NCBI GenBank assembly: GCA_905478325.1
Contig: CAJQIB010000032.1
Location: 1 to 59,160, forward strand
Direction: 5' to 3'
Source of the DNA: an uncultured Flavobacteriales bacterium
GTDB lineage: Bacteria; Bacteroidota; Bacteroidia; Flavobacteriales_D; Sanyastnellaceae
DNA: 59,160 nucleotides
Part shown: positions 50,069 to 52,034 of the stretch, piece by piece
Layout: each line of letters begins with the position of its first letter
Position numbering within the stretch: the stretch's first letter is position 1
Program-made: the position numbers and the translations under genes
The notes under the pieces: generated by a model
The model's database searches: none
Told to the model about the DNA's origin: nothing
Seen by the model: only the letters and a program-made list of their open reading frames with translations

Positions 50069-51337
50069 TCAATGGTGTGCTGGTTCATGTGTGGCATCAC
50101 CGAAGTAGATCGCCGCCAGCAGGGTAAAAACAAATGCTTGAAGGAATGCAACAAGCAATTCAAGGCCATACATGAAAATCATAAACAAGGTGGAAAAAAC
50201 ACCCATTCCTGTACCAGCTCCAATCGCCTCACCTCCATTGCCGAAGATGAAAATCAAACTGGAAAAGGCTAAAATAATGATGTGACCCGCCGAGATATTG
50301 GCGGTCAATCGAATCATCAAAACAGTTGGCTTCATGATGATGCCAAACACTTCAATAGGAACAAGGATGAGCTTCACAGGAAGCGGAACACCAGGAGGCC
50401 ACATGATGTGACCCCAGTAGTGCTTGTTTCCGTTGAGGTTCGTCAGCAAGAACACAAGCGTCGCCAAAACAATGGTCACTCCGATCGTTCCTGTAATGTT
50501 GAATCCTCCCAGGAAGGGAACCAATCCAAGCAGATTACAGAAGAATATGAAGAAGAATGAAGTCAAAAGGAACGGCATGAACTTATCGGCCTTGTCTCCA
50601 ATTGATGGCTTTGCAATTTCATCCCGAATGAATAGAATCAAAGGTTCCAACGCATTCGCCATGCCTTTGGGTGCGCTTCCTGGATTCTTTTTGTACTGCG
50701 ATGCGATGCTACCGAACATCCAGATCATAATGGACAAGATCATCAACATGCCGAAAACAGATTTGGTGATGGACACATCCCAAACACTTAGTTTTTGACC
50801 GTTGAAGGCTGCAGAAATAGAACCCGCTGAAGCCAACGCTACGCCCTCTGCATCCACCACGTCTTCTGCATGCATGGTGTAGCTCACCCCCTCCGATGCA
50901 TCGTAGTGACGATCTCCATGACCGTGACCTTCCAAAGCACTGCTCATAAACACCTTTAACCCATGCCCTTCGATATACAGAATGACAGGTAGTGGAATAT
51001 GAACGTCACCGAAAAGGTGGATGTCATGCGCATCAGCAATGTGATGAATGATGAAGTCTCCCGCTTTAAATTCTTTACTCTCGGCGTGATCCGCGTGGTC
51101 ATGGCCTGAGTGATCCGCGTCAGCTTCTTCAGCGTGCGTTGCGTGGTCATGGTCAGCTCCATCTGCGTGGTCATGCGCTGCATGATCCGTGTCTGCTTCT
51201 TCAGCATGCGCTGCGTGGTCATGGTCCGCTCCTTCTGCATGGTCAGCATGCCCGTGATCTTGCGCAACAGCAACTGTGCCTGTCGAAGAGACGGCAAATG
51301 CAACCAACACAACTAGAGATAAGATCAAGCGATTCAT
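50069..51337 (-). CDS. atpB: ATP synthase F0 a subunit with His-rich periplasmic extension
   Basis: 422 residues from ATG 51337. A signal-like segment (LILSLVVLVAFAVSSTGTVA) precedes a His/Asp/Ala-rich repeat at residues 27-86 with 16 His. A further extramembrane stretch with EGHGHGDRHYD follows, then the usual membrane core from about 200. The core has the proton-path Arg in LMIRLTANISAGH and ends in the final helix LLVAFLQAFVFTLLAAIYFG. E. coli AtpB has 271 residues, so the extension is long; extended forms are known in Bacteroidota. It has a promoter box 27 bases upstream and sits in the operon between the 4-TM protein and atpE. Confidence 0.95.
   Translation of the reverse strand: MNRLILSLVVLVAFAVSSTGTVAVAQDHGHADHAEGADHDHAAHAEEADTDHAAHDHADGADHDHATHAEEADADHSGHDHADHAESKEFKAGDFIIHHIADAHDIHLFGDVHIPLPVILYIEGHGLKVFMSSALEGHGHGDRHYDASEGVSYTMHAEDVVDAEGVALASAGSISAAFNGQKLSVWDVSITKSVFGMLMILSIMIWMFGSIASQYKKNPGSAPKGMANALEPLILFIRDEIAKPSIGDKADKFMPFLLTSFFFIFFCNLLGLVPFLGGFNITGTIGVTIVLATLVFLLTNLNGNKHYWGHIMWPPGVPLPVKLILVPIEVFGIIMKPTVLMIRLTANISAGHIIILAFSSLIFIFGNGGEAIGAGTGMGVFSTLFMIFMYGLELLVAFLQAFVFTLLAAIYFGDATHEPAHH
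51080..51259 (-). repeat. In-gene tandem repeat coding for the His-rich AtpB extension
   Basis: About two diverged 72-base units code for HAEEADTDHAAHDHADG-type and HAEEADADHSGHDHAD-type blocks; a shorter partial unit precedes them. The similarity is visible at DNA level, so expansion by slippage or unequal exchange is likely. Confidence 0.7.
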
Positions 51338-51450: not shown

Positions 51451-51819
51451 TCAACCATGGCTTATTTTCTGAGAAGACGCTACGAGTAAAAAAGTGTTCG
51501 CTGCAAAAGCACCAAATAAGCCCAAGGCAAAAGGAATCCGATGGACGCCGCCAACCGCTACCAGGTAGTAGGTTACGATCGCGAGAGATGTCAACATTTT
51601 GGCCGCAGTCGCACCATTTACGGCTGTTACAAACTGCATCGGAGACTTTGTTGCGGCGCGCACGATCCAATGAAACAACAGAAGTGTTAACACCGCATAA
51701 CCGACAACCAACATTGCCCATGCCCACGTCGATGCAAATTCCGAGAAAGCCGGAATGACATGACCGACAGCGTAAAGACCGAGGTTCACGAGTATGGACG
51801 TTTGAATAAAAGCCTTCAT
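51451..51819 (-). CDS. Four-helix membrane protein of the ATP synthase operon
   Basis: 122 residues with four predicted membrane helices (about 8-25, 32-52, 68-85 and 95-112) and no known catalytic motif. It lies between the AtpZ-like gene (ATGA overlap) and atpB, where other bacteria have atpI, so a role in F0 assembly or ion supply is plausible but unproven. It is not clearly homologous to AtpI by eye. 113 bases separate it from the atpB start. Confidence 0.7.
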   Translation of the reverse strand: MKAFIQTSILVNLGLYAVGHVIPAFSEFASTWAWAMLVVGYAVLTLLLFHWIVRAATKSPMQFVTAVNGATAAKMLTSLAIVTYYLVAVGGVHRIPFALGLFGAFAANTFLLVASSQKISHG

Positions 51820-52034
51820 TTAGAAAGTTCTCTAATGACCAACCATATTGCGAAAACAGTTCCTAAAACCCCACCAATCAATGTTCCGATCGGTATTTGA
51901 TGGTTTGACTGCTCATCCCATCTTCTGCCCAACCAAACAAAAAAACCAATGCTCCCGGCCATGGTAAACACCATGCCAGAGAATCTCAGAATTCCATTCC
52001 GATTGTCAGAATCTCGCTTTGGAGGGGTTGGCAT
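51816..52034 (-). CDS. AtpZ/AtpI-like small membrane protein
   Basis: 72 residues with two membrane helices (FSGMVFTMAGSIGFFVWLG and IPIGTLIGGVLGTVFAIWLV) joined by RRWDEQSNH. This matches the short AtpZ-like family found before F-type ATPase genes and proposed to aid F0 assembly or Mg2+ supply. It starts 13 bases after the bactofilin gene and overlaps the next gene by four bases. Confidence 0.8.
   Translation of the reverse strand: MPTPPKRDSDNRNGILRFSGMVFTMAGSIGFFVWLGRRWDEQSNHQIPIGTLIGGVLGTVFAIWLVIRELSK

What the first reader, a model, noticed from the sequence alone, without database searches (positions are those of the whole stretch)
51080..51259. Histidine-rich tandem repeat at the N-terminus of ATP synthase subunit a
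After a signal-like segment, residues 27-86 contain 16 His in Asp/Ala/Glu-rich blocks built from a duplicated unit of about 72 bases; more His follow in EGHGHGDRHYD. The stretch would lie on the periplasmic side, next to the proton inlet half-channel. Extended AtpB proteins are known in Bacteroidota, but a metal-binding or proton-buffering repeat of this strength is worth attention. Repeat number may vary between strains.
Basis: partly seen in the sequence, partly recalled or inferred. Interest (0 to 1): 0.55.

Follow-up and report, generated by a model that had tools for sequence, protein, structure and literature searches.

The report
Histidine-rich periplasmic tail on ATP synthase
In a group of uncultured Flavobacteriales, the stationary proton-channel subunit of ATP synthase carries a floppy outward-facing tail packed with histidine and acidic residues; such blocks seem to have arisen more than once, at either of two places in the protein, and may help gather protons or bind metal beside the motor.

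Summary
atpB (minus strand, 50069-51337) encodes residues 27-86 with 16 His, 14 Asp, 6 Glu and 17 Ala, over a 72-bp repeat (2.2 copies, 85%). No ATG/GTG/TTG codon lies between residues 11 and 129, so the tract must be translated with the conserved domain behind it. AlphaFold leaves it disordered, next to the His-His helix that E. coli subunit a also has.

The repeat is local; His density is not. All 18 readable same-genus proteins have a His-rich tail; in the 16 measured it is 21-31% His, although lengths (37-79 aa) and sequences (median 40% identity) differ. Elsewhere in the family a similar block sits just before TM1 instead (33 of 92; both sites in 1). It is absent from 50 sampled loci of other classes. 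Selection on His beyond its neighbours is not significant; the apparent trade-off fails phylogenetic correction.

Best reading: a disordered acid-base tail that holds protons (and unavoidably Cu/Zn) beside Fo (0.40). Rivals: a metal-binding tail; a weakly constrained spacer. A His-rich extension of subunit a is already reported in ice worms, at the other terminus. New variant of a known kind.

The parts
50069..51337 (-). atpB, F-type ATP synthase subunit a, 422 aa plus stop
   Evidence: PF00119 184.7 bits, cut-off 33.9; translation
51263..51337 (-). signal-like segment, residues 1-25; likely cleavage before Gln26 (inferred)
   Evidence: helix 2-18 in the model; loose pattern with Gln in 16 of 16 same-genus proteins, narrower pattern in 9 of 16
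51080..51259 (-). His/Asp/Ala/Glu tract, residues 27-86, 16 His, predicted disordered
   Evidence: residues 22-86 have pLDDT under 50
51089..51245 (-). 72-bp tandem repeat, 2.2 copies, 85% matches
51035..51064 (-). His-His helix, residues 92-101 (His98-His99; Asp102 follows), matching the N-terminal helix of E. coli subunit a; modelled with moderate confidence only (block mean pLDDT 69)
50777..51025 (-). periplasmic beta domain, residues 105-187; no Pfam match and no convincing solved relative
50900..50932 (-). second small His cluster EGHGHGDRHYD, residues 136-146, inside the beta domain
   Evidence: His138 in 66 of 84 aligned proteins
50090..50764 (-). membrane part, residues 192-416, with Arg343, Asn347, His352, Glu393, Gln400
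51451..51819 (-). 122-aa ORF upstream of atpB, no family above cut-off
51816..52034 (-). 72-aa PF09527 (ATPase_gene1, AtpZ-like) ORF upstream of it
   Evidence: 36.6 bits, cut-off 26.6

Best explanation
After signal-peptide removal the mature subunit a starts with a disordered, very acidic, His-rich tail in the periplasm, joined to the conserved His-His helix at the outer face of Fo. Shown by sequence: the tract, its recurrence, and its kept His density. Predicted: disorder and joining point. Inferred: it works as a local acid-base reservoir. Carboxylates attract protons and imidazoles (pKa about 5.5-7.5 in a comparable peptide) take them up and release them, so the proton supply at the outer mouth of Fo is buffered; in sea water near pH 8 free protons are scarce. 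It would also bind Cu2+/Zn2+, probably as a side effect or a modulation. Because flexible tails reach far, the block can sit before the helix or just before TM1.
For: His density 0.21-0.31 in 16 of 16 same-genus tails despite lengths of 37-79 and median pairwise identity of 0.40 (120 pairs); two further genomes read later are also His-rich there. Blocks arose more than once: at threshold 9 His, at least 6 changes of the N-terminal state and 9 of the loop state on an AtpB tree of 92. No other match to the tract in its genome. The 16 tails are acidic (13-26 Asp+Glu, 0-1 Lys/Arg), with no Met and one Cys among them. Tail disordered, beta domain and membrane part confidently folded. His codons are under purifying selection against neutrality (N segment 2 nonsynonymous, 7 synonymous of 44 codons). 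Precedents: the peptide DAGHDHGSAHAGAHAHDA has His log K 7.51-5.47 (PMC13308877 passages); a Glu/His cluster in the Polytomella channel is called a local proton reservoir (PMC5747523 passages); a His-rich extension of ice-worm subunit a, put on the E. coli enzyme, raised ATP synthesis, as cited in PMC12796488.
Against: At pH 8.1 the 16 His would hold only about one proton in all (hand arithmetic with the constants), so the buffer is weak. No geometry to the inlet was measured, and the helix that tethers the tail is modelled with moderate confidence. His codons are not significantly more constrained than their neighbours (Fisher P 0.48 in the N segment, 1.0 in the loop, 0.14 against Asp/Glu pooled). 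Phylogenetic contrasts show no trade-off between the two sites (r -0.09, P 0.41). The states are mostly inherited: 14 changes on the tree against 43 for shuffled labels, so independent events are few. The closest chemical analogue, CopI, is a copper binder. 36 of 92 family members have neither block at threshold 9.
Confidence: 0.4

Rival explanations
1. A metal-binding tail: it captures Cu2+ and/or Zn2+ in the periplasm, either to keep metal off the proton inlet or to tune Fo.
For: A blocked peptide of nearly the same composition and spacing binds Cu(II) 1:1 through up to two imidazoles and Zn(II) more weakly, while staying disordered (PMC13308877 abstract and passages). Metal on subunit a has precedent: a putative Zn cap in Pseudomonas and a proposed Zn at His248 in Polytomella (PMC12796488, passages and part of section 8). 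The mature N-terminus would read Gln-Asp-His or Gln-Ser-His in 16 of 16 measured same-genus proteins, an ATCUN-like start if Gln stays uncyclised (motif recalled).
Against: NCBIfam's zinc-uptake family ZrgA scores only 14.5 bits against a cut-off of 185. No Met in the 16 measured tails (L292, read later, has one), so little for Cu(I). Gln26 may be cyclised, which would block an ATCUN site; that is untested for inner-membrane proteins. Over the family only 13 of 47 proteins with the narrower Gln pattern have His at mature position 3. A pure metal buffer has no need to sit on AtpB in several lineages.
Confidence: 0.3
2. A weakly constrained spacer: the segment before the His-His helix is a disordered linker whose composition drifts by repeat expansion; His is carried along.
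For: The 72-bp repeat and strong length turnover. In loci of one family of another class (such as L182, L185, L193) the same position holds an Ala/Pro/Glu-rich tail with little His, so a tail as such does not need His. His-specific constraint is not significant, nor is the two-site trade-off.
Against: Density of 0.21-0.31 in 16 of 16 tails at median 40% identity; His blocks at two separate sites in the family and in other families of the order (5 of 38; 2 of 3); His codons well below the neutral expectation.
Confidence: 0.25
3. An assembly or targeting aid: the acidic tail helps export of the first domain or contacts subunit b, the c-ring or another envelope protein.
For: The tail precedes the helix that in E. 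coli contacts b and c, and truncation of those residues is cited as giving a non-functional enzyme (PMC7251095 passages).
Against: Extreme variation in tail length and sequence does not suit a specific interface; many relatives have no such block.
Confidence: 0.05

Closest known systems
Ice worm (Mesenchytraeus solifugus) ATP6 with His-rich extension (Dunkley, Shain, Klein 2025)
   Same: A His-rich block added to subunit a; reported to raise ATP synthesis when put on the E. coli enzyme (known here only through passages in PMC12796488; the paper itself is not held)
   Different: C-terminal and in an animal mitochondrion; here N-terminal, behind a signal-like segment, in bacteria, and at one of two sites in different genera
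CopI N-terminal His-rich domain (Rubrivivax gelatinosus)
   Same: Disordered His/Asp/Ala/Gly tail of a periplasmic protein, no Met in the 18-residue peptide studied
   Different: Attached to a cupredoxin-like protein, shorter, no link to ATP synthase
Pseudomonas aeruginosa subunit a with putative zinc cap
   Same: His/Asp/Glu of subunit a gather a cation near a proton channel
   Different: Ordered four-ligand site on the cytoplasmic side, with the C-terminal tail
AtpB of other Bacteroidota
   Same: A segment with the His-His motif before TM1 in the loci read; His99 in 83 of 84 aligned proteins
   Different: No block of 9 His per 40 in 0 of 50 loci from other classes (20 of them one family) and 0 of 45 loci labelled Bacteroidales or Bacteroidetes

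Membership tests
F-type ATP synthase subunit a (AtpB) | PF00119 above the curated cut-off | tested here: met
   184.7 bits against 33.9
F-type ATP synthase subunit a (AtpB) | Essential Arg and channel residues | tested here: met
   Present in the window protein; in the alignment Arg343 in 82 of 84, Asn347 80, His352 82, Glu393 81, Gln400 82; two truncated rows are gaps there
F-type ATP synthase subunit a (AtpB) | Fold of subunit a | tested here: met
   Z 20.9 to E. coli 8dbw_a, 247 residues, rmsd 3.0
His-rich subunit a extension as in ice worm ATP6 | Dense His block on subunit a | tested here: met
   16 His in 60 residues
His-rich subunit a extension as in ice worm ATP6 | C-terminal position | tested here: not met
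   Block is N-terminal
His-rich subunit a extension as in ice worm ATP6 | Raises ATP synthesis | not testable with these tools
   Needs an enzyme assay
CopI-type periplasmic metal-binding His tail | Disordered His/Asp/Ala/Gly tail behind a signal peptide | tested here: met
   the signal peptide rests on a pattern and a hydrophobic segment only
CopI-type periplasmic metal-binding His tail | Cupredoxin domain | tested here: not met
   Only PF00119 passes its cut-off
CopI-type periplasmic metal-binding His tail | Binds Cu(II) | not testable with these tools
   Needs titration
ZrgA zinc-uptake protein (NF047873) | Score above curated cut-off | tested here: not met
   14.5 bits, cut-off 185

The most novel reading that the evidence does not exclude
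Flavobacteriales, probably marine ones, have evolved more than once a position-tolerant, disordered His/Asp proton-collecting tail on Fo subunit a, which raises proton supply to the rotor when outside protons are scarce.
Probability: 0.27. Interest if true: 0.75.

Novelty: new variant of a known kind. Interest (0 to 1): 0.5.

Why it matters
Whether the supply of protons at the outer surface ever limits ATP synthase, and whether flexible charged tails can relieve it, has few natural test cases (my judgement). This lineage offers a removable, transplantable tail, with close relatives that lack it or carry it elsewhere in the same protein. It also points to an uncharacterised periplasmic beta domain that these bacteria add to subunit a.

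Tried and rejected
Trade-off between the two His sites: raw Spearman -0.69 (94 proteins) and -0.55 for 21 genus means (P 0.009), but phylogenetic contrasts give r -0.09, P 0.41, with 40 of 67 non-zero contrasts of opposite sign. I do not claim a trade-off. Exclusivity (1 of 92 with both at threshold 9) is told as a count only.

His-specific selection: 33 disjoint close pairs, counting only equal-length segments with at least 60% identity; other segments were dropped. dN/dS-like values at an assumed kappa of 3 were 0.07 for His in the N segment against 0.18-0.32 for other classes of residue, and 0.12 against 0.16-0.25 in the loop; Fisher tests on raw counts are not significant. Equal-length pairs favour conserved cases. 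The first pairwise comparison used gapped alignments that favour matching His, so it is not used as proof.

Solved relatives of the beta domain: Foldseek best E 0.31, VIA-align best Z 3.4, Pfam none for the window domain and four families with one weak hit each in 77 members. The domain-alone model has mean pLDDT 77.3, with its helix and both ends low. This does not show a new fold.

Polytomella-type Zn pair: His352 matches His248, but the residue four further on is Leu, not His, so I rejected that site. Literature: ten searches listed no paper, as far as the listed titles and abstract starts show, on a His-rich N-terminal extension of bacterial subunit a; listings were capped and the library holds open-licence papers only. 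Two ice-worm papers are not held. Papers were seen as abstracts, passages or single sections, none as a whole.

Limits: start codons and signal ends were set by my own hydrophobicity rule. In L150, L169 and L176 it set the start too far upstream, which lengthens the N segment but adds no His; five or so order-level extensions run on into the membrane part because the end motif was missed. Of the 50 loci of other classes, 20 are one family, since one search gave out its best-scoring loci. L018 and L036 are taken as genomes G008 and G012 by matching coordinates.

Full report
What is there. The window carries an atp operon on the minus strand. Upstream of atpB lie a 72-aa AtpZ-like ORF (PF09527) and a 122-aa ORF of no family above cut-off. 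AtpB runs from ATG at 51337 to its stop at 50069. It is an ordinary subunit a by Pfam and by fold, and has the usual channel residues: Arg343, Asn347, His352, Glu393 and Gln400. In front of the membrane part come a signal-like segment (1-25), the His tract (27-86), a helix with His98-His99, and a beta domain. That several of these isolates are marine I infer from their names (recall).

The tract. Residues 27-86 hold 16 His, 14 Asp, 6 Glu, 17 Ala and no Lys, Arg, Cys or Met. The DNA is a 72-bp repeat in 2.2 copies. The content is far above chance, and the tract has no other match in its genome by sequence search. There is no ATG, GTG or TTG codon between residue 11 and residue 129, so a start behind the tract would also lose the His-His motif.

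Is it conserved? I followed AtpB through the genus, family, order and phylum. Of 22 same-genus genomes, own included, 20 gave AtpB and two did not. 18 proteins reach through the tract (16; L291 and L292), and all 18 are His-rich there; the two cut by contig ends (L094, L095) begin inside His-rich sequence. For the first 16, His density is 0.21-0.31, tail length 37-79 and median pairwise identity 0.40 over 120 pairs (range 0.24-0.89). So composition is kept while sequence turns over. A family-wide search found AtpB in 109 of 114 genomes. I read 98 of these: 94 used, four dropped as cut or masked. Of the other 11, contig-end fragments or not fetched, two were read later (L291, L292).

Two places. 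In several genera the N segment has few His, and a comparable block sits in the loop just before TM1. With a threshold of 9 His, 22 of 92 proteins have the N block only, 33 the loop block only, 1 both and 36 neither. Parsimony needs at least 6 changes for the N state and 9 for the loop state; the four-state total is 14, against a mean of 43 for shuffled labels, so the states are mostly inherited. Wider counts of proteins with at least 9 His in some 40-residue window: 16 of 16 in the genus; 31 of 78 in the rest of the family; 2 of 3 and 5 of 38 in two samples of other families of the order (one of the 38, L290, is cut short); 1 of 18 in other families of the class; 0 of 50 in other classes, 20 of those from one family; 0 of 45 loci labelled Bacteroidales or Bacteroidetes. 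The trait is therefore recurrent in this order, strongest in this genus.

Negative results. The apparent trade-off between the sites disappears after phylogenetic correction. His codons are well below neutral expectation in both segments, with P 0.0003 and 2e-7 under an assumed 0.8 nonsynonymous share. They are not significantly more constrained than neighbouring codons.

Where it sits. AlphaFold gives pLDDT under 50 for residues 22-86, about 70 for the helix, about 90 for most of the beta domain, and mostly confident membrane helices. In the domain-alone model the helix is less sure. Structural alignment starts with model residue 88 against E. coli residue 4 (8dbw_a). That agrees with the shared motif: IIHHI here (His98, His99) and IGHHL in E. 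coli (His14, His15). In E. coli, residues 8-16 form a helix on the periplasmic side that touches subunit b and a c subunit, and truncation there is cited as harmful (PMC7251095 passages). The tail therefore probably hangs from the outer face of Fo. Its distance from the inlet is not known.

How it may work. A blocked peptide from CopI with a very similar make-up has His protonation constants from 7.51 to 5.47, binds Cu(II) tightly and Zn(II) more weakly, and stays disordered (PMC13308877 abstract and passages). The AtpB tail should thus both buffer protons and bind metal in a test tube; which one matters to the cell is open. With those constants the 16 His would hold about 1.0 proton at pH 8.1 and 2.8 at pH 7.5 (hand arithmetic, not a call). 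I favour the proton role (0.40) because the blocks recur on AtpB, in either of two outward places, and because a His-rich extension of subunit a has been reported to raise ATP synthesis in E. coli (cited in PMC12796488; original not held). The metal role (0.30) is close behind, and a drifting spacer (0.25) cannot be excluded.

Novelty. Subunit a with a His-rich extension is known from ice worms at the C-terminus, and cations near subunit a channels are known. A periplasmic, recurrent His tail behind a signal-like segment in bacteria did not appear in the listings of the ten searches made (named under Tried and rejected). I file it as a new variant of a known kind, interest 0.5.

Noticed in passing
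window 50777-51064: The 84 aligned AtpB proteins share a periplasmic module: His99 83 of 84, Asp102 84, His104 68, His107 77, His138 66, then a beta domain without Pfam family or convincing solved relative. The H-x2-D-x-H-x2-H pattern could be a metal or structural site.
   Followed up: partly
window 51254-51262 and same-genus loci: The likely mature N-terminus reads Gln-Asp-His or Gln-Ser-His in 16 of 16 measured same-genus proteins: an ATCUN-like site (recalled motif) if Gln is not cyclised, blocked if it becomes pyroglutamate. Over the family 13 of 47 have His at mature position 3.
   Followed up: partly
window 51451-51819: 122-aa ORF between the AtpZ-like gene and atpB, no family above cut-off.
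   Followed up: no
L182, L185, L193 and similar loci: In loci of one family of another class the position before the His-His motif holds an Ala/Pro/Glu-rich tail with little His.
   Followed up: no
   Followed up: no
genome G051: Two near-full AtpB matches on separate contigs; its listed contamination is 7, so this may be a mixed bin.
   Followed up: no
L306, N-terminal part of AtpB: A dense N-terminal His block in another family of the order (11 His per 40).
   Followed up: no
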